From contig JAJQGF010000335.1 in assembly GCA_021200695.1 (NCBI GenBank), positions 1-38,344 of the forward strand: a DNA stretch of 38,344 nucleotides, given 5' to 3'. The DNA is from Lachnospiraceae bacterium. GTDB taxonomy: Bacteria; Bacillota; Clostridia; Lachnospirales; Lachnospiraceae. Made by a program: the position numbers and the translations under genes. Positions 1 to 21,004 of this stretch are shown here, one piece after another; the stretch's first letter is position 1; the number at the start of each line of letters is the position of its first letter. The notes below the pieces were generated by a model. It did not search any database, had not been told where the DNA came from, and saw only the letters and a list, made by a program, of their open reading frames with translations.

Positions 1-522
1 ATACAAATAAGTCAACAACACTATAACATCAAATGTTATAATATCTATTTGTTCAAGTACATGTAAATCCTCTGCAATATCGTCTACCATTATCTCCTTA
101 GAGCTAAAATAATTAATCTGATTATATGAAGCATATGCCAGACTGTATACCTCACCCCTGTCCTTGGACGTACCCCGCACATACTGTACTCTTTCGTGCC
201 GGGCAATATCATTAAAAATTGTAGTATATAGAGGGTCTTTTCCGTAAAGGTCGTCTTCCTTAACTATCATCATATTTTTCCCTTTATATTGTCCTACAAA
301 TTTTTTTGCCTCCATATCCAATTCATTATAAACCTGTTCATGTATAATTATTTGAGTAAAGCTATCAAAAACAGGAATCAAAAAAAGTTTTTTTATATTT
401 TCAAATGAGCAATTTTCATTACTTGCACGTTTTTCTATACCAACCATGAAAATATTTGCATCAAACATAATAGGCTGTTGACATAAACTTTCCAATGATA
501 TTTTCTCTAAAGGTGATTTCAT
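1..522 (-). CDS. PIN-domain-like nuclease (partial, C-terminus beyond window start)
   Basis: Hand-translated open frame from ATG at 522..520 (MKSPLEKISLESLCQQPIMFDANIFMVGIEK...HEQVYNELDMEAKK...GTSKDRGEVYSLAYA...) with no stop to the window edge; N-terminal FDANI plus spaced acidic residues resemble the PIN fold. Not in the ORF track because it is truncated. Start overlaps the ImmA stop (TAATG). Confidence 0.7.
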   Translation of the reverse strand, partial: MKSPLEKISLESLCQQPIMFDANIFMVGIEKRASNENCSFENIKKLFLIPVFDSFTQIIIHEQVYNELDMEAKKFVGQYKGKNMMIVKEDDLYGKDPLYTTIFNDIARHERVQYVRGTSKDRGEVYSLAYASYNQINYFSSKEIMVDDIAEDLHVLEQIDIITFDVIVLLTYLY

Positions 523-1457
523 TACTCATCCCCCCAAAGCTTCTCCAGAAGCTTCTGCATCTCTAAATCATCATCCTTATCTTCTTCCTCTGTATTATCA
601 AAAAAATCATTTACAATCTGGTTATCAAGCTTAAGCGTCTCTGCGTCCCGAAGTATTTCTTCTCTTGCAGCATATCCTGTATCATAAGCGCTTTTCATCT
701 GACGATATATATTTCCGTAAATATCAAAATGGTGATTTTCATTACTATATAAGTACCCTACTTTTTTTTCAAAAATTTTCAATTCACGCAGAACACTTTT
801 AATAAATTCATAGTTCTCTATATATTGACTTATATCATTTATATAAGCCTCCTCATGCAACCTGTATATAACAGCCTTAAGAGGCATCTGATATTTCACT
901 GTAAGCATAATTGATATTGCAGCATAAAACTCAAAATCATGTTTCGTTTCATCCAAACCATTCATATTCTTATGCATAATACGAATTTCGTTTCTCAACG
1001 CATCCTCTGGCAGCAGAAATTCAGCTGCAAAACGGCTTGCTTTTTTTTCATTTACACCTTCAAGAGCATTAAAATTGCAGATATATGGCGTTTCCTTTAT
1101 CATAGCATAATCTTTAATATAGTGATAATACTCATGCGCGGCAGTAAAAATCTGGTTAATCAGCGGTTTATTTGAATTTAAAATTATATAGGCTTTAGCT
1201 GAACCTGTTACGGGAATATAAAGCATACCATCTATCTTGTCCGACTCCAAATCAACCATCTCAAAATGTATATCTGCATTCTGTTCTGAAATCCAATCAA
1301 AAATTTTTTCACCTATAGGTGCAAGTGCATAATTGACCCTTTTTTCTCTTGCCAATTCCTTAATAGCAAATACCTCCTCCTCAGTCAGTGTGGAGGTATT
1401 ATAGTCATACTCAGCCTGATAATACTTTTCAAATGCCTCCTTATTGTCAATTATCAC
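522..1457 (-). CDS. ImmA/IrrE family metallo-endopeptidase (COG2856-like)
   Basis: HExxH motif in AAHEYYHYI followed by NEKKASRFAAEFLLP, typical of ImmA/IrrE; start codon is GTG preceded by GAGG. Confidence 0.88.
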   Translation of the reverse strand: MIIDNKEAFEKYYQAEYDYNTSTLTEEEVFAIKELAREKRVNYALAPIGEKIFDWISEQNADIHFEMVDLESDKIDGMLYIPVTGSAKAYIILNSNKPLINQIFTAAHEYYHYIKDYAMIKETPYICNFNALEGVNEKKASRFAAEFLLPEDALRNEIRIMHKNMNGLDETKHDFEFYAAISIMLTVKYQMPLKAVIYRLHEEAYINDISQYIENYEFIKSVLRELKIFEKKVGYLYSNENHHFDIYGNIYRQMKSAYDTGYAAREEILRDAETLKLDNQIVNDFFDNTEEEDKDDDLEMQKLLEKLWGDE

Positions 1458-1523
1458 CGTTTTACCTCATTTCCGCACATTATAAAATAAGCTTTACAGC
1501 TTCTGCGCATTATTAATAAATCG

Positions 1524-1868
1524 TCAATTTTTTTCGCTCTTACACCTTCTGGCTAAAATTTCATACTTTTCTTTTATTTTTATTCTTTCCATCATGGACA
1601 TAATCTTTTCTTTATCCGCTTCCTCCAATGTGCCCATCAGGTAAATCATTGCATCGTTATCTGTATCATTAAAGTAATCATTTGGCTGAAATTCTCCCAG
1701 ATTACATATCCTATTAAAAATGTCTAACGACGGAGTCTGTTTGCCTGTTTCCAAAAGAGAAAGTGTACTTCTGTTTATTTGAAGCTTTTCAGCAAAATTT
1801 TGCTGCGATTCTTTGCCCCTCAAATTCATCAGGTCTTTACAAAATTTCTGCAAATCAAATGTTTTCAT
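1524..1868 (-). CDS. XRE-family helix-turn-helix transcriptional regulator
   Basis: MKTFDLQKFCKDLMNLRGKESQQNFAEKLQINRSTLSLLETGKQTPSLDIF is a classic HTH_XRE; internal ATG at 1868 preceded by GAGAGG RBS is preferred over the longer ORF to 1907. Confidence 0.88.
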   Translation of the reverse strand: MKTFDLQKFCKDLMNLRGKESQQNFAEKLQINRSTLSLLETGKQTPSLDIFNRICNLGEFQPNDYFNDTDNDAMIYLMGTLEEADKEKIMSMMERIKIKEKYEILARRCKSEKN

Positions 1869-1934
1869 TTTTCCTCTCTTTTCTGCGAAGCCGTCTCGCT
1901 CAATCACGTTTATAATAAAGCTGACCTGTTATTT

Positions 1935-1963
1935 ATTTTAACATTTTATGACATCAGCGTCAA
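1935..1963 (-). promoter_or_regulatory. Putative sigma-A promoter of the XRE-ImmA-PIN cassette
   Basis: Minus strand TTGACG (1963..1958), 17-nt spacer, TAAAAT (1940..1935). Confidence 0.55.
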
Positions 1964-2031
1964 CATGCTGTTATTTTATTTAACATCATGTTATTCATTT
2001 ACATGGTTTCTGTATAATAAACACTTCCGAG

Positions 2032-3504
2032 CTACAGAATATCATCCGTCCACTCAATGTCCACATCAGCGCCGGAATCTGAGCCGCTGTCGCTTCCTGA
2101 AGAATCACTGTCACCGCTGCTGTCATTGCTTCCGCTGTCATCACTTCCGGTATCGTCATCATCATAGTCATCATCGTCTGATAGTGTCTGTGCAGGTGTT
2201 GTAGCTGTCGCCGGCGTTGTCGATGCAGAGGGCGTTGTTGATGTCGAAGGCGCTGTTGATGTCGAAGGTGTTGTCGATGTCGACGTCGAAGGTGCAGTTG
2301 TTGCGGTCGCTGCGGAAGATGATGCTGCGGACGGTTTTGACGCTGATGCCTCTTCAGACGCAGCAGTCGTCTCAGTAATACTCTCCGTTGCTTCAGCATT
2401 TTTTACTGCTTCATCATATTCCTGTTTCGCCGCGGCATATTCCAAAAAGGGGTCCTGAGCAGCATACTCTTCAAGAGCTCCCAATCCTATCCAGCCATTT
2501 TCAGACAGCCATTGTATTTCACCGTCAAATATTCGTATCTGTGGATTTAACAAATTAAGCGCTGTTTCCTCATCCACAGGTTCATAGCCTGTAAATATCG
2601 GATTCGCCGGGAGCCCCGAAATTGCAGATTTGTCCGGCGCGCCGCCATAACCGTCAAGCGCAGTGTATTCCATGCTTTCACGGTTATTCCACAGGTCATA
2701 TATATCGCTCTTGCCAAATCCCTCATGAAGTGCAATTTCATAACCGTCCGTCCGGAGTACACCCTCGCTGAAGCTGCCGCCCTCCCTCATAATATCTCCT
2801 GTAGTACCGTTAAGCGTCCATAAAGTAAATTCTCCATCGTATACTCCGTCCGCAATCATTGTATCCAGCATAATGGCCGTATTATTATTATATCCCAGAT
2901 AGATAACCTTATTGTCCTCACCGTAATACCATATATTTGAATATTGTCCCCCGTCCTCATTATATCCTGCTGAAATCACCATTTTCACTTCACCGTCGGC
3001 AAGCTTAAAATAATTTCTTCCGCCCTCATAGAGCTTAGGCATCATTGTGGTGAACCAATCGTCCTCCTCCACCAGATGCAGGCTCTCCGGTCGATACTCT
3101 TCAAGCTCCAGATTCTGAAGCATAAGCCCGGCCATATCCTGCTGCTCTGTATCCTCCTCGTCCAGATTTACATAGATTTCACTCAATCTGTCAAGAGCTT
3201 CCGCCTCTCCGAAAAGCCGATAGCTCTGTTCAAGAATATCTCTCTGTTTTCTAATCAGTCCAAGTACGGCATATTGCTCCGCCAAAGCATAATAATCCTG
3301 TGCCGTGGAATCATCCTTAATAAACTGCAGCTGTAGTACATCAGTATTTTCAGCTATATTGTCAGCCTCTGTATCCGCTAAATCCGCTGAGGCTCCTGAA
3401 TTCGTAATATCTCCGCAGCCCACAGTCAGCAATACACCTATAAGGACTGCTGACAGTGCATGCAGCTTTTTTATTCTTCTATTTTTATTTTTCATAATCT
3501 TCAT
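2032..3504 (-). CDS. Large lipoprotein: TPR-like N-terminus, MORN-like middle, Ser/Thr-rich stalk and Asp/Ser-rich acidic tail
   Basis: Signal sequence with lipobox LTVGC; YYALAEQYAVLGLIRKQRDILEQSYRLFGEAEALDRLSEIYV TPR-like; DGVYDGEFTLWTLNG...MREGGSFSEGVL MORN-like; C-terminus ...STSTTPSTSTAPSTSTTPSASTTP...SDDDDYDDDDTGSDDSGSNDSSGDSDSSGSDSGSDSG. Confidence 0.75.
   Translation of the reverse strand: MKIMKNKNRRIKKLHALSAVLIGVLLTVGCGDITNSGASADLADTEADNIAENTDVLQLQFIKDDSTAQDYYALAEQYAVLGLIRKQRDILEQSYRLFGEAEALDRLSEIYVNLDEEDTEQQDMAGLMLQNLELEEYRPESLHLVEEDDWFTTMMPKLYEGGRNYFKLADGEVKMVISAGYNEDGGQYSNIWYYGEDNKVIYLGYNNNTAIMLDTMIADGVYDGEFTLWTLNGTTGDIMREGGSFSEGVLRTDGYEIALHEGFGKSDIYDLWNNRESMEYTALDGYGGAPDKSAISGLPANPIFTGYEPVDEETALNLLNPQIRIFDGEIQWLSENGWIGLGALEEYAAQDPFLEYAAAKQEYDEAVKNAEATESITETTAASEEASASKPSAASSSAATATTAPSTSTSTTPSTSTAPSTSTTPSASTTPATATTPAQTLSDDDDYDDDDTGSDDSGSNDSSGDSDSSGSDSGSDSGADVDIEWTDDIL
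2213..2290. repeat. Imperfect ~18-bp tandem repeat encoding the S/T/P/A stalk of the lipoprotein
   Basis: Consecutive units ggcgttgtcgatgcagag / ggcgttgttgatgtcgaa / ggcgctgttgatgtcgaa / ggtgttgtcgatgtcgac, then a partial gtcgaa. Confidence 0.75.
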
Positions 3505-3516
3505 ATTCTCCCCGCA

Positions 3517-5676
3517 TTATTGCGCATCATTTATAAGCTGGTTCAAAAAATTATAGGCGTCCGAGCCCTCCTCATATGTTCCCATGCCAAGCACCTGCTC
3601 AGCAAGCGAATAAATACTTCTCGCCATAATCGGTCCATATACCGTAGTCTGTACTCCGTCCTTTTCCAATATTGCATAACCCCTGAACGCAAACTCAGTC
3701 TTGTACTGCTGCTCCGGCAGTCCCACAAGTACGGAGGTAAACCTGAGCCTTCCATTAACTGTTTCATATATATAATCGTCCAGACCTCCATCAGCATTGG
3801 TGCCATATGACATTCCCGATGCAACCTTCTCGCCTCCCTTTATCATCGCATATGATGAACGGTTGGCATTGTTCATTACAAGAGTCCCATACTCCTTAAG
3901 CACATAGCCGTTTACCCCGGCTTCTGTAAGGCTGCTTCTAAGCTCTTCGGATATTCCGGTCTTAAAGCGTATTCCGCTCTTTCCCGTTATTCTTATGGAA
4001 AATCCGTGGTAAGTAAGCAGATCCTCCAGGTCTGGCTGTTCAGTAACAGTGTACGCATTATTTTTGTACTGAAGTGTCCACAGATACATTCCCTCAGGTA
4101 CACCGCTGTCGTTATAGCGGTACACAACCGCATTAGTTGCATTTCCGTCGGATGCCGTAACTATTAAATTCCCGTTTCTGGATACTCCGCTGTACTCAAC
4201 TCCGTCCAGCCAGACTGTTGAGGAATAACCACTTGGAATTTGCAGCACTACATTTGTGGAATATTCGGGCTTCTCACATGCAGTCTCCGGCATATTGTCA
4301 TACACAGGTATCTTAAACACAAAGGTGCTGTCAAAAGCTCCCGCACTCACATAAAGCTTTTTCATGCTCAGCGCTTCGCTGGCAGGTGCGGATATATTCT
4401 GCATATACTGATGGCTGAACGTGGAATTGGTGGTAACATTAAACTTCTGCAAATACAGCGTATCCTGTCCTCTTCCTATATAGTTGCCTGAAATTGTCTC
4501 GGTGCCTCCAAGTATAGAGTAATATGCATTATACCAGTTCTTGCTCTTTGCGTATTTAAGACCATTCTCAATATACTCTGAATCAGAGCTTCCCGTGGCT
4601 CCTATATTAAAATAATTGTAATATCCCTCATATCCGCTGTATGTGCCTGATATAAGCGCAGATGTCCCCTGCCCCTGCTCCTGATATACTCTGGATGCAA
4701 GATGAAAAGGGCTTACATTCATTTCACTGCCAATCGCCCAGAAAATTTTTGCAAAGGTCATGTCAGTACCAGGCGCATTCTGGCTATTGTTCATAAAGGT
4801 ATTGCTTAAGAATGTATCTACCGCCGCCTCCGTATGATAGCTCTCGTTATATGTCAGCTGCTCAAACTGAAATATTGCATCCTCCGTAAGGCTGTTTCTG
4901 GGGTCCATATAATATTTCAGTGCAGCCTCCGATGCAAAATACCAGCTTCCATTGTCGTAAGAGCCCTCCTTCATGCAATCAGCCAATGACGAATGCACAA
5001 GGCTCTTACCCTCTCCTATTTCATTTTCTATAGCTGTATCCCAATCAATATTTGTATTCATCGGTACAAATATCCAATCAGGATGCGCCTCCTTCAGCTC
5101 ACGCAGAGCGGTCTGGTAGCTTTCAGGGAACTGCTCTACATCGGAATAGTCAATGACAGCGCCCTCCTCAAGACTGTACTGCGCAACCTGCGTCACAGGG
5201 TCAAGCCCGGAATTTGCCTTCCACTGAATAAATCGTTCGTCAGAGGTTACCACATTGCCAGAGGGCACATAACCCCTGTATTCTTCATTATTATAGCAGA
5301 GGCTCACATACAGCCATAATTTCCACACATTATAATATTCATCCAGCGGCTCTATTTCCGCATCCTCTATAAAGACCGTCTGACCGCTGAATATGGTGAC
5401 TACTGTCTCACTGTCATCAGACGCCTCTGCGCGCACTTCAATTTCATCAGTCAGATATATCAGTGCAAGAATCTGCTGCTCATCAGATATTGCTCTAAGC
5501 TTTCCCCTCTCCTCACTTACAACCTCAGACATATATTCTGCAATTTCCTGAGCAAGCTCAGCATCATTGTCAGAAACGGCATGCGCGTAATTGCTGCCTC
5601 CCGACATAAATATCGCAAAGGATATTACAAGCATCACTGCTGCTGCCGTTATCTTAAACATTTTTCTATTTTTCAT
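3517..5676 (-). CDS. Secreted glucosaminidase-domain cell wall hydrolase (N-acetylglucosaminidase-like, with SH3-like N-terminal region)
   Basis: Signal peptide MKNRKMFKITAAAVMLVISFAIFMSGG; region FAKIFWAIGSEMNVSPFHLASRVYQEQGQGTSALISGTYSGYEGYYNYFNIGA typical of the glucosaminidase family; RBS GAGGAATAATG at 5676. Confidence 0.75.
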   Translation of the reverse strand: MKNRKMFKITAAAVMLVISFAIFMSGGSNYAHAVSDNDAELAQEIAEYMSEVVSEERGKLRAISDEQQILALIYLTDEIEVRAEASDDSETVVTIFSGQTVFIEDAEIEPLDEYYNVWKLWLYVSLCYNNEEYRGYVPSGNVVTSDERFIQWKANSGLDPVTQVAQYSLEEGAVIDYSDVEQFPESYQTALRELKEAHPDWIFVPMNTNIDWDTAIENEIGEGKSLVHSSLADCMKEGSYDNGSWYFASEAALKYYMDPRNSLTEDAIFQFEQLTYNESYHTEAAVDTFLSNTFMNNSQNAPGTDMTFAKIFWAIGSEMNVSPFHLASRVYQEQGQGTSALISGTYSGYEGYYNYFNIGATGSSDSEYIENGLKYAKSKNWYNAYYSILGGTETISGNYIGRGQDTLYLQKFNVTTNSTFSHQYMQNISAPASEALSMKKLYVSAGAFDSTFVFKIPVYDNMPETACEKPEYSTNVVLQIPSGYSSTVWLDGVEYSGVSRNGNLIVTASDGNATNAVVYRYNDSGVPEGMYLWTLQYKNNAYTVTEQPDLEDLLTYHGFSIRITGKSGIRFKTGISEELRSSLTEAGVNGYVLKEYGTLVMNNANRSSYAMIKGGEKVASGMSYGTNADGGLDDYIYETVNGRLRFTSVLVGLPEQQYKTEFAFRGYAILEKDGVQTTVYGPIMARSIYSLAEQVLGMGTYEEGSDAYNFLNQLINDAQ

Positions 5677-5698
5677 TATTCCTCGTTCTTTCCTGCAT

Positions 5699-6451
5699 TT
5701 ATCCAAAAATCCATTTTACTGCTTCTATCATTACACATTCTATAATATAAAGCCTGCTGAAGCCATTAATACGATAGCAATAGCGATAACGGTCCACTAT
5801 ACGCTTTTTTGCCTCTCTGAGGCTCTTTTTATTGCTGGCGCCTCCCATTCTGAAATTTGCAAGAACCTTATCTATAACAACGATTTTTCTTTTCTGTTGT
5901 TTCATTTGAAGAAAAAAACCATAATCATCGTGTATTCCCAGATTTCGGAAGGGATTCTCCTTATAAATCTGTGCCCTTACAAAGGTTGTAGGATGATTCC
6001 AGTCTCTTGAGGTTTCAAAGCCTCTGAGCCTTGCTTTCTTGATAAAGGTGCTTCCGTCAGTCCTATGCATACATATATTGGCATACATGAGGTCACAGCT
6101 GTTAAGCCTGAAGGTCTCTGCCACAGTCTCCACAGTGTCGGGTTCGTACCAGTCATCGCTGTTTAATATACCTATTACATCTCCCGTGGCCTTGCGTATG
6201 CCCTTGTTCATCGCGTCATAGATTCCCTTGTCCGGCTCGCTGTCCACACGGTATATCACGCCCTTCTCCTCAAATCTCTCACGATAGCCTTCTGCAATAC
6301 CCACTGTATCATCGCTGCTTAATCCGTCCACTATCAAATATTCCAATTCAACATCCGCGGAGCCTAAGCAGGTCTGTCCCAGCACTGATTCGATTGTATG
6401 AGCAATGGTTTCACCACTGTTATATGCTACTGTGATTATGCTAATCCTCAT
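5699..6451 (-). CDS. Glycosyltransferase family 2
   Basis: MRISIITVAYNSGETIAHTIESVLGQT...YLIVDGLSSDDTVGIAE...DKGIYDAMNKGIRKATGDVIGILNSDDWY; start overlaps the upstream gene. Confidence 0.85.
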   Translation of the reverse strand: MRISIITVAYNSGETIAHTIESVLGQTCLGSADVELEYLIVDGLSSDDTVGIAEGYRERFEEKGVIYRVDSEPDKGIYDAMNKGIRKATGDVIGILNSDDWYEPDTVETVAETFRLNSCDLMYANICMHRTDGSTFIKKARLRGFETSRDWNHPTTFVRAQIYKENPFRNLGIHDDYGFFLQMKQQKRKIVVIDKVLANFRMGGASNKKSLREAKKRIVDRYRYCYRINGFSRLYIIECVMIEAVKWIFG

Positions 6452-7343
6452 GTGTTTTCCTGATACTCTCCTCAAGTGAATATATCTGATATCCCGAAAT
6501 CCTTCTGCGGCTTAAATCCTTATCAATAGTCAGCGAGCCAAATGCCTTGTCCGCAAGAGCACCTGTTTTCCCCGGCACATGAGCCGCAATATGCACAAGC
6601 GGATTCAACAGCCTGCAAGGCGCGACCCTTCCTCCCATTGCGGCAGCTATCTCGCACACCATCCGGCATGTATTCACATACTCAGCGTTCTGCGGATAAA
6701 ATGTACCCCCTTCTCCGCACTCGATAAGAAGCCTTAAAAATTCCGCAAGATTTTCAACATATATCATGCTGCGGCTGTTTTTTATATCCGGGAAAACCGG
6801 AAGCTTCCGGGCAAGATGTACAAGCATCGGATAATTTCCCCTGCTGCCTTTACCATATACCATCGGGGAACGTACAATCGCCACCGAAAAATCCTCGTCC
6901 GCCATAGCATTAAGCTTCTGCTCTGCCTGCCATTTGCTGTCACCATAAAAATTTGCGGGCGCCGGCTTCGTGTCAGCCGTAATGCGCTTATCCTTTCCGA
7001 CACCGGCACTGTCTCCGTATATTATGACACTGCTCATATATATGAACTGCGACACACCGCTCTCCTTCGCTTTCCTGCAGGCCTCTGCCGCCAAATCACA
7101 ATTTACTTCATAATATTTTCTCTTTGTCTCCTCAGAGACATTGCCTGTGTCGGCATGTGCAATTCCCACCATGTGAAGCACCGAGGCATACACTGAGAAA
7201 TCCGTCTTCTTCCATTCATCACCCCTGAGTGATATTACATCAACACAGTACATGCCGCCATGAGAATCATTATATTCCTCAAGCCGCCTCTTAACATTTT
7301 GTCCAAGATAACTGTCTTTTCCTGTGATAAGTATTCTTTTCAC
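6441..7343 (-). CDS. NAD-dependent epimerase/dehydratase
   Basis: Rossmann start VKRILITGKDSYLGQNVKRRL, YGDSKWQAE catalytic region; GTG start at 7343 with AGGAG 8 nt upstream is favoured over the longer ORF to 7406. Confidence 0.8.
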   Translation of the reverse strand: MKRILITGKDSYLGQNVKRRLEEYNDSHGGMYCVDVISLRGDEWKKTDFSVYASVLHMVGIAHADTGNVSEETKRKYYEVNCDLAAEACRKAKESGVSQFIYMSSVIIYGDSAGVGKDKRITADTKPAPANFYGDSKWQAEQKLNAMADEDFSVAIVRSPMVYGKGSRGNYPMLVHLARKLPVFPDIKNSRSMIYVENLAEFLRLLIECGEGGTFYPQNAEYVNTCRMVCEIAAAMGGRVAPCRLLNPLVHIAAHVPGKTGALADKAFGSLTIDKDLSRRRISGYQIYSLEESIRKTHED

Positions 7344-7365
7344 CGTATCACTCCTGTCAGGAATT

Positions 7366-7995
7366 TTAATATTTGGCATCATCGCCCTCTGCTTTTTCTT
7401 CGTCACGGCTTCCGGTGCCGCCCTCTACAACACCGTCCTCTCTGAACACTTTTATAAAGGTACCGAAAAAGCATTTTAAATCCATCCGAAATCCCATCCT
7501 GCTGACATATTCACCATCAAATCTTGCCTTCACAGGTATCTCAAGCTCATCCCGTCCGTTTATCTGCGCCCATCCGGTGAGACCCGGCCTGACATCATTT
7601 GCGCCGTATTTGTCTCTCTCCTCTATCAGGTCATACTGGTTCCAGAGTGCGGGACGCGGCCCGACAATCGCCATGTCTCCTTTTAGTATATTGATAATCT
7701 GCGGAAGCTCATCAAGGCTTGTCCTCCTTAAGAAGCCTCCAAGCCTTGTAATGTACTGTCCGGGATTTTTAAGCATATGCGTAGGCATATCCTTCGGCGT
7801 ATCAATGCGCATAGTACGAAACTTTAATATATTAAAATATGTTTTGTGTATTCCCACACGCTTCTGTTTAAAAAGTACAGGTCCCTTAGAATCAAGCTTT
7901 ATGGCCAATATCAGAAGCAAAAATACCGGCGAGAGCACAATTAGCCCTAAAAGGGCGAGCAGACGGTCTGTTATATTCTTAAACCCTTTATACAT
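7366..7995 (-). CDS. Short bacterial sugar transferase (undecaprenyl-phosphate phosphoglycosyl transferase, PglC/EpsL-like)
   Basis: DRLLALLGLIVLSPVFLLLILAIKLDSKGPVLFKQKRVG...FKILKFRTM-like...RTSLDELPQIINILKGDMAIVGPRPAL...RPGLTGWAQINGRD. Confidence 0.9.
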   Translation of the reverse strand: MYKGFKNITDRLLALLGLIVLSPVFLLLILAIKLDSKGPVLFKQKRVGIHKTYFNILKFRTMRIDTPKDMPTHMLKNPGQYITRLGGFLRRTSLDELPQIINILKGDMAIVGPRPALWNQYDLIEERDKYGANDVRPGLTGWAQINGRDELEIPVKARFDGEYVSRMGFRMDLKCFFGTFIKVFREDGVVEGGTGSRDEEKAEGDDAKY

Positions 7996-7998
7996 GTA

Positions 7999-9900
7999 TT
8001 ATTTCCTTTCGTACCGGTAGGTAGGAACAATCTCCTTTATAACGGCTCGTATATCGCTCTCCTCGTCAAGCGAAGCCAGACGCAGCTTTTCAAGCTGCTC
8101 CTCAAACCTGTCCTCATCGTACTCGATAGGCTCTCCGATATAAATCATCCTGTTTGCGGTCTCCCTCAGACCCTCTTCATTCATCAAAAGCTCCTCATAC
8201 ATCTTTTCACCGGGTCTGAGGCCGATAAATTCAATCTTTATATCCTCCCCGACCTTATATCCCGAAAGCTGTATAAGATTCCTGGCAAGGTCTACTATCT
8301 TCATCGGCTCTCCCATATCAAGGACAAATATTTCTCCTCCTTTGGCATACGCGCCTGCCTGAAGTACAAGCGAAACGGCCTCGGGAATAGTCATAAAATA
8401 TCTGATTATATCAGGACTTGTTACCGTTACCGGCCCGCCCTGCTCTATCTGTTTTTTAAACAGAGGTATGACGCTTCCGTTGCTTCCGAGAACATTTCCA
8501 AATCTGACAGCCACAAACTCCGTCTTGGACCTTCTGTTAAGGCTCTGTATCAACATCTCACATATACGCTTGCTGGCGCCCATAACATTGGTCGGATTTA
8601 CCGCCTTGTCGGTAGAAATCAGAACAAATCTTTTTGCCCCATATTTATCTGCCGCCATTGCCACCTTTAATGTACCAAACACATTGTTTTTGATTGCCTC
8701 ATTGGGGCTGTCCTCCATCAACGGCACATGCTTGTGCGCCGCCGCATGGTATACAATATCGGGACGGTATTTTTTAAATAATTCCTCCACCCTGCCGGTA
8801 TTCCTGACGGAGCCGATAAGTACAACAATTTCGAGCTCGGGAAACCTGCTTATAAGCTCCTGCTGTATATCATAAGCATTATTTTCATAAATATCAAAAA
8901 TAACAAGTCTCTTAGGAGAATGCTCGGCAATCTGCCTGCACAGCTCGCTTCCGATTGAGCCACCGCCTCCGGTTACAAGGATTACCTTATTCCTGACATA
9001 ACCCATTATCTCGTCCACGTTGACCTCTATAGGGTCTCTTCCCAACAAATCCTCTATCTGAACCTCGCGAAGATTGGACACATTGACATCGCCATTGATG
9101 AGCTGATACATTCCGGGAAGTATCCTTAAATGGCACCCGCTCTCCTTGCATATCTCCACTATGGGCTTTATCTTCTGCCTGCTCGCAGAAGGAATGGCAA
9201 TAATTATCTCATCTATTGCGTATTTCTGAACATTGTCAAGTATGGTGTCCCTTCCACCGACAATCGGCACACCTCTAAGATATTTCCCATGGCATCCCGG
9301 ATTGTCATCAATAACACAGGCAACATGCATACTCAGATAACTGCTGACCTCTATTTCCTTTATTATAGCATTTCCCGCAGCACCACCTCCGATTATCATA
9401 CAGTTGAGACGTATCTTACCTCTGGCATGGTCGAGCCGCCGCTTTTGAACCGCACGCATTATTCTATAGCTGAATCTAACCCCGCAGGTAAATATAAGCA
9501 GGAAAAATCCATAGAAAAACGGAAAGCTTACCGGCAGCCTCACACCCATAATAACACAAAATACAGGCTGAGCTATCATGCAAAATATTACAGCTATTCC
9601 ATTATTAATCATTTCCGAATCGGACGCATATCTCCACACACTGTTATACAGTCTTAAAAGATAAAATATAAACAGCATAAACAGCACGTTCGGAATATAT
9701 GTCATAATTGCCGCGTCCCAGAATTCTCTTGGAACATCCATAAACTTAAAATCGTATCTTACATATAAGCTTAAAATCTCCGAAATAAATACCGCTACTA
9801 TATCAGAAAGCATAAGCAGTATTATTCTTGTTACAGGTATTTGCAGAAACCCGATTCTTACATCCTTCAAATTTTTTAATTTTTTCATAACCATCCTCAT
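7999..9900 (-). CDS. Membrane-bound polysaccharide biosynthesis NDP-sugar epimerase/dehydratase (CapD/EpsC-like)
   Basis: N-terminal TM helices, second Rossmann VILVTGGGGSIGSELCRQI, KAVNPTNVMGASKRICEM, GLRPGEKMYEELL. Confidence 0.92.
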   Translation of the reverse strand: MRMVMKKLKNLKDVRIGFLQIPVTRIILLMLSDIVAVFISEILSLYVRYDFKFMDVPREFWDAAIMTYIPNVLFMLFIFYLLRLYNSVWRYASDSEMINNGIAVIFCMIAQPVFCVIMGVRLPVSFPFFYGFFLLIFTCGVRFSYRIMRAVQKRRLDHARGKIRLNCMIIGGGAAGNAIIKEIEVSSYLSMHVACVIDDNPGCHGKYLRGVPIVGGRDTILDNVQKYAIDEIIIAIPSASRQKIKPIVEICKESGCHLRILPGMYQLINGDVNVSNLREVQIEDLLGRDPIEVNVDEIMGYVRNKVILVTGGGGSIGSELCRQIAEHSPKRLVIFDIYENNAYDIQQELISRFPELEIVVLIGSVRNTGRVEELFKKYRPDIVYHAAAHKHVPLMEDSPNEAIKNNVFGTLKVAMAADKYGAKRFVLISTDKAVNPTNVMGASKRICEMLIQSLNRRSKTEFVAVRFGNVLGSNGSVIPLFKKQIEQGGPVTVTSPDIIRYFMTIPEAVSLVLQAGAYAKGGEIFVLDMGEPMKIVDLARNLIQLSGYKVGEDIKIEFIGLRPGEKMYEELLMNEEGLRETANRMIYIGEPIEYDEDRFEEQLEKLRLASLDEESDIRAVIKEIVPTYRYERK

Positions 9901-9997
9901 TTCTGAGCGATTTACCGCGCTTTAAACAGACTATACTCCTGTTTGTCCTTCTAATGTATTACATATTAATAAAAATGTCAAAACCACAGCCATTATA

Positions 9998-11035
9998 TCA
10001 TTTTAATGCCCTTATTTTCCTGTGCAGCCTTCTCGCTGTACGCGGAGCGGCGGCAAGTATTATATGATAGCATTTGTTTTTTATGGTCAGATATCTGTTT
10101 CCCATGCTCTTTAACAGATTGCATCTCATCCATGCTACTATTTCCCTGTACTGTACATTGTCCCCTGTCATAAGGCATACCGGTATATGCAGAAGGTATT
10201 CTATTCTCTGGAACACCCCGAACCTGAATGCCTCATCCTCAAGAGCCGGATAATTTTCCTTAACTATTTCCGCCGCCATATCTGCATTATCAACACAATC
10301 CCCGAACACCTCCGAAAAGCTGTCCCTGTCCGCTTTTCTGGAATTGCTGCCTATCCTGTAAAACACATGATATGCCTGCTTTGGCAGCGATACCAGCCCT
10401 TCTGTCTTTGGCAGCAGACGCACCAGAAGCGCGAAATCCTCATTAAGCCTTCCTATAGGGAAGGGCTCTCTGTTTTCACACAAAAGCGACCTGTGTGTAA
10501 GCTTTGTGCAGAATGAGCAGTCCCCCCTGTGCATCAGCAGCTCGCGCATAAAGGCTTCGCTGTCTATGCATACCGGCGATACAGGAGGCTCGCAGATGTT
10601 TGGAAGCCTGCTGCCATCCGAAGCTATCTCGTCCCTGCCAATCTGAGCTATCTTCACATTATAAGCGGTTATTCCCTCATACAGCAGGCTGTACATATCA
10701 CTGTCTGCATAATCATCACTGTCTATAAAGCCTATATATTCGCCGCTCGCATATAGAAGCCCCAGATTACGTGCCGACGAGGAGCCTCCGTTCTCCTTGT
10801 GCAGCACCTTTATACGTGAATCCTCATTTCCAAGCTCATCACAAAGTATGCCCGTTCCATCGGTTGAGCCGTCGTCCACAAGTATAATCTCAAGATTTTT
10901 GTATGTCTGCTCCATTATGGAGTGTACACATCTGGGCAGATATTCGATTACATTGTACACCGGAACTATAACTGTTATCAGTGGTTCTATATCGGTATTT
11001 ATTGTGTCACTCATGTGTATCTCCGTATTTTCCAA
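9998..11035 (-). CDS. Glycosyltransferase family 2
   Basis: LITVIVPVYNVIEYLPRCVHSIMEQTYKNLEIILVDDGSTDGTGILCDE...ARNLGLLYASGEYIGFIDSDDY. Confidence 0.9.
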   Translation of the reverse strand: MENTEIHMSDTINTDIEPLITVIVPVYNVIEYLPRCVHSIMEQTYKNLEIILVDDGSTDGTGILCDELGNEDSRIKVLHKENGGSSSARNLGLLYASGEYIGFIDSDDYADSDMYSLLYEGITAYNVKIAQIGRDEIASDGSRLPNICEPPVSPVCIDSEAFMRELLMHRGDCSFCTKLTHRSLLCENREPFPIGRLNEDFALLVRLLPKTEGLVSLPKQAYHVFYRIGSNSRKADRDSFSEVFGDCVDNADMAAEIVKENYPALEDEAFRFGVFQRIEYLLHIPVCLMTGDNVQYREIVAWMRCNLLKSMGNRYLTIKNKCYHIILAAAPRTARRLHRKIRALK

Positions 11036-11050
11036 AACAAATAAAATCAG

Positions 11051-12256
11051 TTACTTTATTAATCTGCCATACATTCTTTTTTCTGATATGGCTCTTTCAG
11101 GTGCGCAGGGATATGTGTCCTCATAATTTTCACCACATTGTCCTCCACTGTCTCCCAGCAGCCCGTCAAGCAGCTCAAGGAGACGCTTTGCAGCATTTTG
11201 CGGATTCCAGACCTCTGTTATCGTCCTATAGGCGTTTTCCCCAAGCTCCCTGCGAAGCCCGGGCTCCATGACAAGCCTCTCGGTTTCCTTAAAAAGCTGC
11301 TGTTTATCCCCGTCTCTGTAAATAATACCGTTGTGTTCGTTTCGTATCAGGTACGGGACAGCGCCTATCATGTGGTCGGCCACAACCGCACAGGCGCTGT
11401 TCATAGCCTCATTCAGGACTGCACCCCAGCCCTCCTGCCTGTCGCTGGTAAAAAGAAATATATCCGCCCTCTCCATATATCGGCGTACCTCACCGGGAGT
11501 CTTAAAGCCTGCCATTTTAACGCTGCCTGAGAGACCCTTCCTGTCTAGCATTTCTCTCAGCCCGGCTTCCATATCTCCTCCTCCTATTATATCCATATGA
11601 AAGGCTATATTTTTATTTTGGAGATATTCCGCGGTTTCAAGGGCAAGCTCGGCATGCTTCCAATCTATAAGCCTTCCTGCCCACAGAATATATGGCAGCT
11701 CTCCGTACCCCTTACCCTCGATAAGCCTATCCACATCATACAGCTCCGTACGGGGAAAATATCCCCATTTATACATTTTCCCAGGGTAAGCCCTTACTAT
11801 ATGATAGTCTGATGCAACATACCCGCCGGCACAGAGCAGAAATACCGGTGCCCTTCTGTATCTTGTATGGTCGTGATATTTCTTAATAAGGCCTCGGGGT
11901 GATATTGCCTTCCATTGTCCCGTCTTATAGAGCCTCTCGCTTATTCTTACAACCGGCATCCCGTTTTTCAGCCTTTCCTCAATATATGTCTCATCATCAC
12001 AGCCTCCGAAAAGCACAACCTCGCTTTCTCTTATAAGTCTTTTGCAGTATTCCTCCTCCTCATAAAAGCGCCGTACATATAAAAGCCCCTTTTCCTCACT
12101 CCAGCCCATTTTGACGCGTTCCTCCTCCATAGGCTCGGTTTGTATAAAGGTAAAGCTTCCTCCTCTCTCCTCCAATAAACAGCACATGCTCTCGCAGAAA
12201 GGAATCTGATGATGATTTATATAATTTGACACAAATGTCACATTAATTTTTCTCAT
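11051..12256 (-). CDS. Glycosyltransferase family 4 (GT-B)
   Basis: LPYILWAGRLIDWKHAELALETAEYL...ADIFLFTSDRQEGWGAVLNEAMNSACAVVADHMIGAVPYLI; 4-nt overlap with the upstream gene. Confidence 0.87.
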   Translation of the reverse strand: MRKINVTFVSNYINHHQIPFCESMCCLLEERGGSFTFIQTEPMEEERVKMGWSEEKGLLYVRRFYEEEEYCKRLIRESEVVLFGGCDDETYIEERLKNGMPVVRISERLYKTGQWKAISPRGLIKKYHDHTRYRRAPVFLLCAGGYVASDYHIVRAYPGKMYKWGYFPRTELYDVDRLIEGKGYGELPYILWAGRLIDWKHAELALETAEYLQNKNIAFHMDIIGGGDMEAGLREMLDRKGLSGSVKMAGFKTPGEVRRYMERADIFLFTSDRQEGWGAVLNEAMNSACAVVADHMIGAVPYLIRNEHNGIIYRDGDKQQLFKETERLVMEPGLRRELGENAYRTITEVWNPQNAAKRLLELLDGLLGDSGGQCGENYEDTYPCAPERAISEKRMYGRLIK

Positions 12257-13602
12257 TTCCGAGCCCTTTCCGCAATATTTGAGTAGATTTCCACCATTTT
12301 CGCATAATTAGCCTCTCTGTTATGGGTAGTTTTTGCATGTATTCTTGCATTTTTGCAAAAAGTGTGTTTTTTTGAGGGATTTTCCCATATTTCACAAACA
12401 GCCTTTTCCAAGGCCTCAGAAACATTATAAAGTCCGCCGTCATATGCTGTCATATCCGGTCTTAAATCTGCATCAAAGCCTTTAAATCCTGCTCCGTCAA
12501 CTCCCGCCGTAAACATATCGGGTATTCCTCCTACAAGCGCCGCCACGCATGGTACCCCCAGAAGCATTGCCTCGCCAAGAGAGTTAGGAGAATTTTCATT
12601 TGCCGAGCAGCACACGAAAACTCCGCAGTTTAGATATTCCTCCTTCATCTGTTCTGCCGAAAGCATACCCGTAAAATGCACCCTGCCCTCAAGACCCTCA
12701 TCTCTTATCAGCCTGCGCAGATATTTTCCATAGGCAGATATTTTCATTTTGTCTTTAAGGGCAGCATACTCTACCAGACTGTTTCCTGCCGCACGTATCT
12801 CAATATCAGGATATTTCTTCACAAGCCTTCCCGCGGCAATCAGCAAATAATGAAATCCCTTAAGCGGATAGTCCGCCTGACTGATAAATATAGTGTGCGG
12901 CTTACTGCTCTCCTCACTCCACTTTCCCTGATAAAAGCAGGTACGCAGCGTCTCGTTCATTGAATAATACGTTAAGCCCTGATTGTATTTATATGCATAT
13001 CCGCGGTCAAATTTCGTGCGGCCGATGACATTTACCGCACGGGATATCACCTCCTGCTCACGAAGTCCCCTGATTGCGTATTTGCGCTGCTGCTGCTTTA
13101 TGCTGTCCCTTTTTATAAAATCCCTGAAGGTTACACTGTTCTGAACACTCTCGGGAATATTTGCCATATAGCTCTCCGCTATAGCGGTACATATCCCCTG
13201 AAGCCCAACTACGATTTTCTCAGGCGTACTGCAGGCTTTAATTGCTGCCAGCGTATGCGGAAATTCCGTTCCAAAGCAATGTATAACCTCCGGCTCTGCT
13301 TCATTTATTATATCAGCAAGCTGCTTCTCAAGAAACGGCCTGTATTTCTCTGGCTTGTGTATCTCCTCGGTAAACGCGTAATATGTCAATACTGCACCGT
13401 TTTCCAAATGAAGCTGCCCGCTTTTTATTCCTGAAGCATTGTCTGTCGGAAATGCAATGTGAAGCTCTATATTATTTTTTGTGTGATTTTCGAGGATAGT
13501 GCTGCACAGTCCCGTGAGCCACCCCTCCTTATTGCCGGCGCCAAGTCCGAGCTTATGGGCAATTATGGGAAGCATTGTATTGCATATCCACAATATTTTC
13601 AT
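12253..13602 (-). CDS. Glycosyltransferase family 4 (GT-B)
   Basis: MKILWICNTMLP...FISQADYPLKGFHYLLIAAGRLVKKYPDIEIRAAG...CSANENSPNSLGEAMLLGVPCVAALVGGIPDMF. Confidence 0.88.
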   Translation of the reverse strand: MKILWICNTMLPIIAHKLGLGAGNKEGWLTGLCSTILENHTKNNIELHIAFPTDNASGIKSGQLHLENGAVLTYYAFTEEIHKPEKYRPFLEKQLADIINEAEPEVIHCFGTEFPHTLAAIKACSTPEKIVVGLQGICTAIAESYMANIPESVQNSVTFRDFIKRDSIKQQQRKYAIRGLREQEVISRAVNVIGRTKFDRGYAYKYNQGLTYYSMNETLRTCFYQGKWSEESSKPHTIFISQADYPLKGFHYLLIAAGRLVKKYPDIEIRAAGNSLVEYAALKDKMKISAYGKYLRRLIRDEGLEGRVHFTGMLSAEQMKEEYLNCGVFVCCSANENSPNSLGEAMLLGVPCVAALVGGIPDMFTAGVDGAGFKGFDADLRPDMTAYDGGLYNVSEALEKAVCEIWENPSKKHTFCKNARIHAKTTHNREANYAKMVEIYSNIAERARK

Positions 13603-13614
13603 TCCTGCATCTCC

Positions 13615-14736
13615 TCAGTCAAATATCCAGTTAAGATAAGGCAGAAGCCTTACGTCTACATCATACATTCCCCTAAGCAGCATGGCAAAATATACTGTGA
13701 ATGCGGCCGTAACCCCTGTATAGCATAATCTCCTGAACCATCTGCTCTCTATCTCTCCAACCACCCGCGGAATCAGAAATATCTGGGATATTATCATATA
13801 ATACCCCACCCTCGAGACCTCCGGTATAAATGAACCGCAGCAGTATACAATAAGCCCCCCTAAATTAAGAAAAAAGTAAAATCTGTTGGCAATATCACCG
13901 TTAAGACTTTTCCTTCGGCATATTCCACACAATACCAATACTGCGATACATTTTGCAATATTTACATATGAAACCTGACCATTGTCAAATGCAGAAGCCT
14001 CATAATACGGATAAAAGTAAAAAACAATCTGTCTTAAAATACTCTTACCAAAGATTATTACCGCCAATATAAACGCACAGCCTAAGGCATAATGCCACTT
14101 TTTCAGTCTTGCAGCCGCAAGCCATCTCGCAATAATATACACCGGTATAACAAGGAAAACAGATTTGTGAAACGCACCTCCGGCTATTATCCAGAGCACA
14201 AAGCATGCATATTCTCCTCTAAGCACATATTTCATTGAGTAAAGCGCAATCGCCAGCGCAAGATAATATCGCACGGAATTCAGACTGTTAAAATAATATC
14301 CCCCGGTCATCAGAAGAAACAGGGAAAACGCATAGTCTGAAGCCTGTGCATGCATCGCCAGCGAAAAAAACATCACCGTAAGAAATGAGAACAGCGCAAA
14401 GACAGGAAGATAATTATCATAGCCAAAAAGCTTCTGCATTCCCTTTACAATTAAATTAAACCCAAACTCAGACGATACATAGCGCTCCTGAGCTATAAGC
14501 CTGAAATTGAAACGATATGGCCAATAATCATTTCCTACCGCGATACGGCATGCCGATACACCGGTTAGCAGACAAAATATTGCAAGCTCGGCAACCATAT
14601 TGCGGGCATACTGCCTGTCCTTATAAATATATTGTCCGCCGATACAGCGCGGCACATATGACTTATTTCTGACAAACAGACCAAGCGCCACCGTAACTAT
14701 GGTAAGAATAATGTAAACCAATGCCGAGCTCTCCAT
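13615..14736 (-). CDS. EpsG-like multi-pass membrane protein (putative EPS polymerase)
   Basis: MESSALVYIILTIVTVALGLFVRNKS...VGNDYWPYRFNF...SSEFGFNLIVKGMQKLFG...NSVRYYLALAIALYSMKYV; start at 14736 preferred (RBS, avoids overlap with upstream gene). Confidence 0.78.
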   Translation of the reverse strand: MESSALVYIILTIVTVALGLFVRNKSYVPRCIGGQYIYKDRQYARNMVAELAIFCLLTGVSACRIAVGNDYWPYRFNFRLIAQERYVSSEFGFNLIVKGMQKLFGYDNYLPVFALFSFLTVMFFSLAMHAQASDYAFSLFLLMTGGYYFNSLNSVRYYLALAIALYSMKYVLRGEYACFVLWIIAGGAFHKSVFLVIPVYIIARWLAAARLKKWHYALGCAFILAVIIFGKSILRQIVFYFYPYYEASAFDNGQVSYVNIAKCIAVLVLCGICRRKSLNGDIANRFYFFLNLGGLIVYCCGSFIPEVSRVGYYMIISQIFLIPRVVGEIESRWFRRLCYTGVTAAFTVYFAMLLRGMYDVDVRLLPYLNWIFD

Positions 14737-14759
14737 ACCGCATCTACCTTTCCTGACTA

Positions 14760-15533
14760 TTACTCCTCCCGCATGCCGTCCCGCATCCATGCGAATGCCT
14801 GTCCTACTCCTGTCTCCCTGCATATTGTGTCCCTATGCGCAAGAAGGAATCTTATCGCCATCACTGCTGCCGGCTTTCCGTACAAATATTTGTACAACAC
14901 TCCTCTGTCCCTGAAAAATTTCTCATTATAGCCTTCAAACCATGACGACTCTCCGGTCTCCTCCCTGCCTATCGTTACAGGCGCAGTATAAACCCTGTAG
15001 CCCTTTGACATGAATTCCCTGAGAAAGAGGCTGTCCTCTCCGTTGCTGTACTTAGCTCCGCCTCCAAACAGCAGAGAAAAGGTGACTCCTGATTTTAACA
15101 GGCTCTCCCTTCTTACAGCAAAGCTCACCGCACCGTATCGTCCGCAATTATACCAATGCACCCTTCTCCTGTCAGTAATATTATAGGTGCGTCTGGCCTC
15201 GTCGACCGTAATATTAAAAAGTATCATATCCGCTTTGGGATTTCTTTCAAATTCCGCCTCAACCGCATCGGCATATCCATCCTCATACACAATGTCTTCA
15301 TCAGAAAAAAGGCAGATATCTCTATCTGCTCTTAAAATTGCCTCATTGCGGCTCCTTCCTACTCCTCTGTCAGGAAAGGAAAAAAAGCGCACTCTGTGCC
15401 CTTTGTATTCTGCCTCCTCAAATGCAAAGCAGTCACATTGGTTAATTATAATTGCATCTGAATCAATTCTCATCGTATCCACAATATTTTGAAGTGAACT
15501 GTTCATAACACTCGCCAAAACCTGAACACTCAT
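14760..15533 (-). CDS. Glycosyltransferase family 2-like
   Basis: DRGVGRSRNEAILRADRDICLFSDEDIVYEDGYADAVEAEF; RBS GAGG before ATG at 15533. Confidence 0.75.
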   Translation of the reverse strand: MSVQVLASVMNSSLQNIVDTMRIDSDAIIINQCDCFAFEEAEYKGHRVRFFSFPDRGVGRSRNEAILRADRDICLFSDEDIVYEDGYADAVEAEFERNPKADMILFNITVDEARRTYNITDRRRVHWYNCGRYGAVSFAVRRESLLKSGVTFSLLFGGGAKYSNGEDSLFLREFMSKGYRVYTAPVTIGREETGESSWFEGYNEKFFRDRGVLYKYLYGKPAAVMAIRFLLAHRDTICRETGVGQAFAWMRDGMREE

Positions 15534-15540
15534 AGATACC

Positions 15541-16644
15541 TCATTTCCCGGCCTGTTTATCCATATCATTTTTAGGAATCAGATAGTATGCCCTGATAAG
15601 CCATTCATCCGCAGAATTCAAAAAAACCGCCGTAACATCTATATCCTGCTCCGCCATAAATTCAAGAACTCTCTCTATTTTCCTGCCTGCATGACTGCCT
15701 GCATTTACACTGAGAAGAACCCCGTCCATCTTTCGCATACATTTTACACTCTCGGGACAGATTGCCGGAGCCGGAACGGGAATCCACTCTGTCTGCACAC
15801 GCGGGGGATTTCCCGCCTGCGCGCCGCCGTTTTGAAGCATACGGCTGAGCATATCTGCTATCTGGCTGCAATCGGCACTGTCCTCTGCCGTGCACACCGC
15901 TGCCTTTCTTACATCCTTAAAAATATATTCTACATTTGTAAGAAGCTCTATGCTCTGTGCGGTTCCCACACATTTGAGTCCATACCTCCTGCGTATGGAT
16001 GCGGGAAGCCATATACCATCATTTCCCGTCTCATAAATCAGGAATATCACCAGCGCGGAAAAGCATGAAAGCACCGCGCTTAATATAACCGCCCTAAGGG
16101 GTCTTACATCCTCCTCTGACTCGACAGCCTCCCTGGCCTGGGAAATAACCGTTATCCGGCTTATCTGAGGATTGCTCCCGGCAAAGTATTCCGTCATTGT
16201 CACCTCCACAGCCCGTTCGACCTGAATACACAGCTCAGGCTCCTGGGCAGTCACAGTCACCGTCGGAACATGCAGGTCGGACGCAAGTGTTGCGCTCAGC
16301 ATCCCCGCAAGCTCACCTGAATCACACTGCTGCACGCCCATCTCCGCAAGCGTTTCGCAGAGCGCGCCGATAAAATCTCCCGACTGCACATAGGTATTCC
16401 AGCTCGTCTCATTAATGTAATAATCACCCGATTTTGATGGCTCGTCAGTATATTCAACCTTATATGTGGAGGCCGCCTCATAATAATGTGTTGTAACAAG
16501 CATCACATTCTTCACATAATATCCGCCTCCAAACACAACAGTGCCTAACACCGTCGCCATTACAATGATATTAAGCCTTCTGATAAGCCTCAGCACTGTC
16601 AGTCTGAGGTCAAAGGGTTCTCTGCCATATTGCGCCTCGAACAT
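15541..16644 (-). CDS. Wzz/CpsC-like chain-length determinant with degenerate BY-kinase-like C-terminal domain
   Basis: Two TM segments flanking an extracellular domain (LRLTVLRLIRRLNIIVMATVLGTVVFGGGYYV ... LRAVILSAVLSCFSALVIFLIYE); C-terminal region resembles CpsD/ParA-type sequence without a Walker A motif. Confidence 0.75.
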   Translation of the reverse strand: MFEAQYGREPFDLRLTVLRLIRRLNIIVMATVLGTVVFGGGYYVKNVMLVTTHYYEAASTYKVEYTDEPSKSGDYYINETSWNTYVQSGDFIGALCETLAEMGVQQCDSGELAGMLSATLASDLHVPTVTVTAQEPELCIQVERAVEVTMTEYFAGSNPQISRITVISQAREAVESEEDVRPLRAVILSAVLSCFSALVIFLIYETGNDGIWLPASIRRRYGLKCVGTAQSIELLTNVEYIFKDVRKAAVCTAEDSADCSQIADMLSRMLQNGGAQAGNPPRVQTEWIPVPAPAICPESVKCMRKMDGVLLSVNAGSHAGRKIERVLEFMAEQDIDVTAVFLNSADEWLIRAYYLIPKNDMDKQAGK

Positions 16645-16655
16645 AATGCCTCCCG

Positions 16656-18098: not shown

Positions 18099-18187
18099 GC
18101 TTTATTTCCTCCCTGTTTCGAAGGTGCATGATTTTAAAAGCATACCTTTAGAGTATACCACATTCCTTGCATTTTTGTATATATTTC

Positions 18188-18949: not shown

Positions 18950-18990
18950 CCTTGTCCTCCATTCTGAAGCGCTCTGTACTGTCCGGAGCT

Positions 18991-20980: not shown

Positions 20981-21004
20981 CGCATTTTTACCTTATTATG
21001 GTAT

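What the first reader, a model, noticed from the sequence alone, without database searches (positions are those of the whole stretch)
1..1868. XRE / ImmA-IrrE metallopeptidase / PIN nuclease three-gene cassette (candidate protease-controlled toxin or defence module)
Seen: XRE HTH gene, then ImmA-like gene with intact HEYYH, then a PIN-like ORF whose ATG overlaps the ImmA stop (TAATG), all co-oriented behind one promoter-like sequence. Known: ImmA-type proteases cleave cognate XRE repressors (ICEBs1 ImmA/ImmR), XRE-COG2856 pairs have been predicted as toxin-antitoxin-like, and PIN domains are common RNase toxins. Inference: protease-triggered derepression could release a translationally coupled nuclease. 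The ORF track misses the PIN gene.
Basis: partly seen in the sequence, partly recalled or inferred. Interest (0 to 1): 0.62.

Follow-up and report, generated by a model that had tools for sequence, protein, structure and literature searches.

The report
Protease-controlled PIN toxin defence cassette
Three bacterial genes (a DNA-binding repressor, a zinc protease and an RNA-cutting enzyme) always travel together and probably form a phage-defence or toxin switch; databases already flag this trio as a candidate defence system, so it is a well-supported but not new kind of thing.

Summary
The window is a whole contig from a Lachnospiraceae-type genome bin. Its first 1.9 kb encode XRE, ImmA/IrrE (M78, HEYYH) and a PIN nuclease. 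The ImmA stop overlaps the PIN start, and the PIN gene is cut by the contig end (174 of about 219 residues). All 42 relatives found with the PIN profile carry the same three genes in the same order. A full-length relative folds confidently as a PIN domain, with invariant D21, E67, E124 and D/E143. The trio matches PADLOC's uncharacterised candidate defence system PDC-M69, and Xre/COG2856/PIN operons were predicted as three-component toxin-antitoxins in 2009.

New here: (i) twin palindromic operators TGTTA-N7-TAACA, 42 bp apart, on the promoter, conserved in the family; (ii) a cysteine 15 residues after HExxH in 34 of 39 proteases, resembling the cysteine switch of CapP and VapB52; (iii) in six treponeme loci the trio lies between hsdR and hsdS; (iv) PIN is broken in seven cassettes with intact XRE and ImmA, never the reverse.

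Best reading: XRE autorepresses; ImmA senses damage or infection and, by cleaving XRE, raises or frees the PIN toxin. Function is untested.

The parts
1524..1868 (-). XRE-family repressor gene, 114 aa (P0002); HTH plus a short helical C-terminal region
   Evidence: Pfam HTH_3 E=4e-6; PADLOC capH 1.7e-5 and PDC-M69A 0.003, PDC-M69A in 19 of 26 and capH in 23 of 26 family members
522..1457 (-). ImmA/IrrE-type zinc metallopeptidase gene, 311 aa, GTG start (P0001). HExxH 108-112, third ligand E137, cysteine at H112+15 (residue 127), helical C-terminal region with acidic tail
   Evidence: Peptidase_M78 1.5e-11; PDC-M69B 5.7e-19, capP 1.2e-13; fold matches IrrE/PprI and an M. tuberculosis regulator; conservation
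1..522 (-). PIN-fold nuclease gene, cut by the contig end (174 aa of about 219; P0003); acidic residues corresponding to D21, E67, D121, E124, E143 of the full-length homologue
   Evidence: PDC-M69C 4.5e-10, 37 of 38 family members; AlphaFold2 of the full-length 70%-identical homologue pLDDT 92.6, Foldseek hits are PIN nucleases
1935..1963 (-). sigma-70-type promoter TTGACG-17-TAAAAT
   Evidence: same arrangement in most Lachnospiraceae relatives
1927..1943 (-). operator O2 TGTTAAAATAAATAACA, covering the -10 hexamer
1969..1985 (-). operator O1 TGTTAAATAAAATAACA, just upstream of the -35 hexamer, 42 bp from O2
520..524 (-). TAATG stop/start overlap between ImmA and PIN (likely translational coupling)

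Best explanation
A self-regulated three-gene toxin/defence operon of the PDC-M69 type. XRE binds the twin operators over its own promoter and keeps the operon low (inferred from conserved operator sites). ImmA is a zinc protease held inactive by a cysteine-containing loop (inferred from a conserved Cys). On a signal of phage infection or DNA damage ImmA becomes active and cleaves XRE. This lifts repression and/or breaks the XRE-ImmA complex that restrains PIN. PIN, made from the same mRNA by coupled translation, then cuts RNA (most likely tRNA, by analogy with VapC) and stops growth or blocks phage. Shown here: gene order, conservation, folds, active-site residues, operator sequences, co-inheritance. 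Inferred: repression, cleavage, signal, target, toxicity, defence.
For: 42/42 PIN-profile loci carry XRE-ImmA-PIN co-oriented, co-diverging, mostly with non-conserved neighbours in Lachnospiraceae, as expected of a mobile module. PIN model pLDDT 92.6, top structural matches VapC, Nob1, PRORP/HARP; D21, E67, E124 and D/E143 kept in 38 of 38. HExxH in 39/39, E137 in 38/39, Cys between them in 35/39 (34 at H+15), near where CapP and VapB52 have theirs (PMC13273310). Operators: 26 exact GTTA-N7-TAAC in 25 upstream regions versus 0.1 in shuffles; 19 of 25 have two or more sites (allowing one mismatch), nearly all 41-43 bp apart; other gap lengths give 0-2 exact sites. capP profile hits 39/39 proteases, PDC-M69B 39/39, PDC-M69C 37/38 PINs. 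Cassette between hsdR and hsdS in six treponeme loci (domains confirmed by Pfam in one). PIN-only lesions 7:0.
Against: No functional data. Window PIN is incomplete. Cleavage of XRE, the ssDNA or other signal, and toxicity are all inferred. The predicted C-terminal part of this ImmA is helical with no strands, unlike the GAF-like domain that PprI needs for ssDNA activation (PMC10904395), so the signal may differ from CapP. A small subclade (L057, L058, L059, L061) lacks the cysteine. The window's own neighbours look like exopolysaccharide genes, not a defence island, and flanks in Lachnospiraceae hold only scattered defence genes (no enrichment control).
Confidence: 0.6

Rival explanations
1. 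ImmA (with or without XRE) is mainly a direct antitoxin that binds and neutralises PIN, as in RosmerTA and VapBC52; its protease activity destroys the antitoxin complex (self-cleavage or XRE cleavage) to release ready-made toxin. Transcriptional control is secondary.
For: Seven cassettes have a broken PIN with intact XRE and ImmA (L018/L086 insertion sequence, L047 46-residue deletion over the active site, L053, L055 both copies, L011/L090, L072) and none of the scorable ones the reverse; under equal per-base lesion rates p = 0.002 for PIN versus ImmA. RmrA profiles hit most proteases. NetFlax places ImmA as antitoxin hub with PIN-like partners (PMC10440598); VapB52 binds VapC52 and self-cleaves with ssDNA (PMC13273310).
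Against: Separate XRE gene with strong conserved operators points to transcriptional control; lesion counts are small and some single-base ones may be assembly errors; no interaction tested.
Confidence: 0.3
2. XRE/ImmA is the immunity control of an integrated element (ImmR/ImmA type) and PIN is a passenger.
For: XRE and ImmA resemble ImmR/ImmA; such pairs are common in phages and prophages (PMC2701414).
Against: PIN is tied to this XRE/ImmA subfamily in 42/42 loci, flanks are unrelated between loci, and PIN overlaps ImmA translationally; no plasmid or phage record matched the PIN.
Confidence: 0.07
3. A stress-response module (DNA damage) without phage defence role.
For: IrrE/DdrO-like logic (PMC10904395); toxin-antitoxin modules often act in stress.
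Against: Placement inside type I restriction operons in treponemes and match to defence-candidate profiles favour defence.
Confidence: 0.15

Closest known systems
PADLOC PDC-M69 (candidate defence system, unpublished function)
   Same: Three genes with profiles A (XRE), B (ImmA) and C (PIN) all hit, same composition
   Different: Window XRE hits M69A only weakly (0.003); PDC-M69 has no published mechanism or test in the library searched
Xre/COG2856/PIN three-component toxin-antitoxin (Makarova et al. 2009, PMC2701414)
   Same: Same gene kinds and the same proposed logic (protease cleaves an Xre repressor/antitoxin of a PIN toxin)
   Different: There the Xre and COG2856 domains are often fused; here they are separate genes; this PIN family has no significant Pfam match
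VapBC52 of M. tuberculosis (PMC13273310)
   Same: HTH plus IrrE peptidase antitoxin next to a PIN tRNase, with a cysteine switch and ssDNA-triggered cleavage
   Different: HTH and peptidase are one protein there; Cys at H+9 not H+15; only remote sequence similarity
CapH/CapP controllers of immune operons
   Same: Separate HTH repressor and M78 protease; capP/capH profiles hit; Cys in the same loop (H+13 by sequence in the CapP chain)
   Different: CapP has a GAF-like domain and controls adjacent immune operons; here the operon is just the two genes plus PIN and the C-terminal part is helical
RosmerTA (RmrA/RmrT)
   Same: HTH-M78 antitoxin with a toxin; RmrA profiles hit
   Different: RmrA carries HTH and protease in one protein and pairs with varied toxins in a two-gene layout

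Membership tests
PDC-M69 | protein A profile (XRE) | tested here: inconclusive
   window E=0.003; 19 of 26 family members hit at 0.01
PDC-M69 | protein B profile (ImmA) | tested here: met
   5.7e-19; 39/39 members
PDC-M69 | protein C profile (PIN) | tested here: met
   4.5e-10; 37/38 members
PDC-M69 | anti-phage activity | not testable with these tools
   needs phage challenge
PIN nuclease superfamily | PIN fold | tested here: met
   model pLDDT 92.6 of the full-length homologue; nearly all of the top 30 PDB matches are PIN nucleases, TM to target about 0.5-0.6 for the best
PIN nuclease superfamily | three to four acidic active-site residues | tested here: met
   D21, E67, E124, D/E143 in 38/38; D121 is D or N
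ImmA/IrrE (M78) peptidase | HExxH plus downstream Glu ligand | tested here: met
   39/39 HExxH, 38/39 E137
Cysteine-switch protease (CapP/VapB52 type) | Cys in the loop between HExxH and the Glu ligand | tested here: met
   35/39, 34 at H+15; coordination of zinc not tested
CapH/CapP | C-terminal GAF-like domain on the protease | tested here: not met
   predicted C-terminal part all helical
RosmerTA | HTH and protease fused in RmrA | tested here: not met
   separate genes
Toxin-antitoxin system | toxicity of one gene and neutralisation by another | not testable with these tools
   only indirect: lesion asymmetry 7:0

The most novel reading that the evidence does not exclude
A compact immune switch in which a cysteine-gated protease with a non-GAF helical sensor region both restrains a PIN toxin directly and cleaves the operon's repressor, giving two-layer (release plus derepression) control, and which can be slotted into type I restriction operons as a back-up that fires when restriction fails.
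Probability: 0.2. Interest if true: 0.65.

Novelty: new member of a known kind. Interest (0 to 1): 0.4.

Why it matters
Three-component Xre/protease/PIN operons were predicted in 2009, and PADLOC's PDC-M69 still has no published function in the library searched. This family gives concrete handles to test them: defined operators, a candidate cysteine switch, active-site residues and cultured relatives that carry complete copies (Eubacterium ramulus, Coprococcus catus, Butyrivibrio hungatei). The restriction-embedded treponeme versions make the 'back-up to restriction' idea testable.

Tried and rejected
Completing the PIN gene from the same genome bin: nothing found. PIN in plasmid and phage collections: no match. 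A regulon for XRE: exact operator sites elsewhere in the genome occur only at control level and are not paired. Sequence search of PDB with the PIN profile: no match; only fold comparison worked. Pfam did not recognise the PIN family. Viral structure library: nothing strong. General defence-island enrichment of flanks: scattered AbiE, BrxL, type I methylase hits but no control, so not claimed. Papers naming PDC-M69: none. RNA features and tRNAs: none.

Full report
What is there. The window is a whole contig (G000:C272) of a 2.26 Mb, 80% complete genome bin. Reading leftwards on the minus strand from 1868 are an XRE gene (114 aa), an ImmA/IrrE metallopeptidase gene (311 aa, GTG start, HEYYH) and an ORF that runs off the contig end (174 aa). 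The last two share TAATG. Pfam confirms HTH_3 and Peptidase_M78; the third ORF has no significant Pfam match. PADLOC recognises all three as PDC-M69 A (weak), B and C.

Is it conserved? A search of 397 family genomes with the truncated PIN found 11 genomes; the trio is seen in those examined with near or moderately distant PINs, while the weakest match (L022) is an unrelated ATPase. A scan of 85k species genomes with a PIN alignment gave 42 loci, mostly Lachnospiraceae, others in Spirochaetes (Treponema, Pleomorphochaeta), Sporomusa, Fusibacter and other clostridia. All 42 have XRE, ImmA and PIN in this order and orientation. The three proteins co-diverge. Flanking genes are unrelated between Lachnospiraceae loci, apart from two near-identical loci (L043, L046) and a few isolated shared genes, so the module moves as a unit.

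Is it a PIN nuclease? AlphaFold2 on the closest full-length homologue (70% identical) gave pLDDT 92.6. Foldseek against PDB returned VapC proteins, Nob1, protein-only RNase P and exosome Rrp44 PIN domains as nearly all of its top 30 (best E 8e-4; TM to target about 0.5-0.6). D21, E67 and E124 are invariant in 38 sequences, position 143 is always D or E, and position 121 is D or N. In the model these fall after strand 1, beside the helix after strand 2, at the start of a helix, and after the fourth strand, as PIN active sites do (my reading of the secondary structure).

The protease. Its structural matches are IrrE, PprI and an M. tuberculosis HTH-peptidase regulator (modest scores). HExxH is invariant in 39, the Glu ligand in 38. 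A cysteine lies 15 residues after the second His in 34, and in that loop in 35. CapP and VapB52 are reported to use a cysteine in this loop to block the zinc until ssDNA binds (PMC13273310; alignment). Unlike CapP and PprI, the C-terminal part is predicted to be helical, so the signal may differ.

Control region. The promoter TTGACG-17-TAAAAT carries two palindromes TGTTA-N7-TAACA at 1969-1985 and 1927-1943, the second over the -10. In 25 Lachnospiraceae-type upstream regions there are 26 exact GTTA-N7-TAAC sites (0.1 expected from shuffles). Allowing one mismatch, 19 regions have two or more sites, nearly all 41-43 bp apart; no other gap length shows this. This is strong evidence for an autoregulatory operator, though binding by XRE is inferred. 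In the genome bin, exact sites elsewhere are at background level, so no regulon is indicated. In the window the operators sit about 37 bp further from the XRE ATG than in relatives.

Defence context. In six treponeme loci the cassette lies between a gene for a type I restriction HsdR and one for HsdS, which overlaps PIN in most of them, with an HsdM gene further down in several (Pfam for locus L050). L033 has an HsdM-like gene downstream. In the window itself the neighbours look like surface polysaccharide and envelope genes (inspection of ORFs), so context there is neutral.

Direction of control. Seven cassettes carry a damaged PIN with intact XRE and ImmA; none of the cassettes that could be scored shows the reverse. 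If PIN and ImmA were hit in proportion to length this has p about 0.002 (0.03 if only four lesions are counted). A pure activator would be lost as readily as the toxin, so this hints that ImmA also restrains PIN. Some single-base lesions may be assembly errors, and the loci were found through PIN.

Known context. Makarova et al. (PMC2701414) predicted three-component Xre/COG2856/PIN systems. NetFlax (PMC10440598) places ImmA as an antitoxin hub, partnered by PIN-like domains. VapBC52 (PMC13273310) shows the fused form working: PIN tRNase, peptidase antitoxin, ssDNA-triggered cleavage, phage resistance on toxin overexpression. CapH/CapP is the split form controlling immune operons (reviewed in PMC13373217). 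PDC systems in PADLOC are unpublished candidates (PMC11811056), and two others (PDC-M63AB, PDC-S04) showed no activity when tested (PMC12409345), so a PDC label is not proof of defence.

Conclusion. A real, conserved and mobile XRE-ImmA-PIN operon; a divergent Lachnospiraceae branch of PDC-M69. It most likely works as an autorepressed, protease-switched PIN toxin. The kind is known; the operators, the cysteine, the restriction embedding and the lesion asymmetry are the additions.

Noticed in passing
L055 1950-6700: Two XRE-ImmA-PIN cassettes on opposite strands side by side in a Pleomorphochaeta bin, both with PIN interrupted by stops while XRE and ImmA are intact.
   Followed up: partly
L018 / L086 (G283 contig C23 end): PIN interrupted after residue ~69 by what looks like a transposase sequence at the contig end, XRE and ImmA intact.
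   Followed up: partly
L048-L052, L054: Cassette sits between hsdR and hsdS of a type I restriction operon, with the hsdS ORF overlapping PIN by about 28-46 bp in four of six; accessory ATPase genes differ between loci; their promoter region carries a different palindrome, GTTACAATTTGTAAC.
   Followed up: partly
window 1458-1523: 66-bp gap between XRE and ImmA that most relatives do not have (they overlap there).
   Followed up: no
L091, L093, L096, L108: More distant XRE/ImmA pairs are followed by other, dissimilar PIN-like or unassigned genes, suggesting the XRE-ImmA control pair is modular.
   Followed up: no
window 2032-21000: Long, mostly minus-strand run of envelope/exopolysaccharide-type genes (glycosyltransferases, sugar epimerases, a 490-aa Ser/Thr/Asp-rich lipoprotein-like ORF) beside the cassette.
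   Followed up: no
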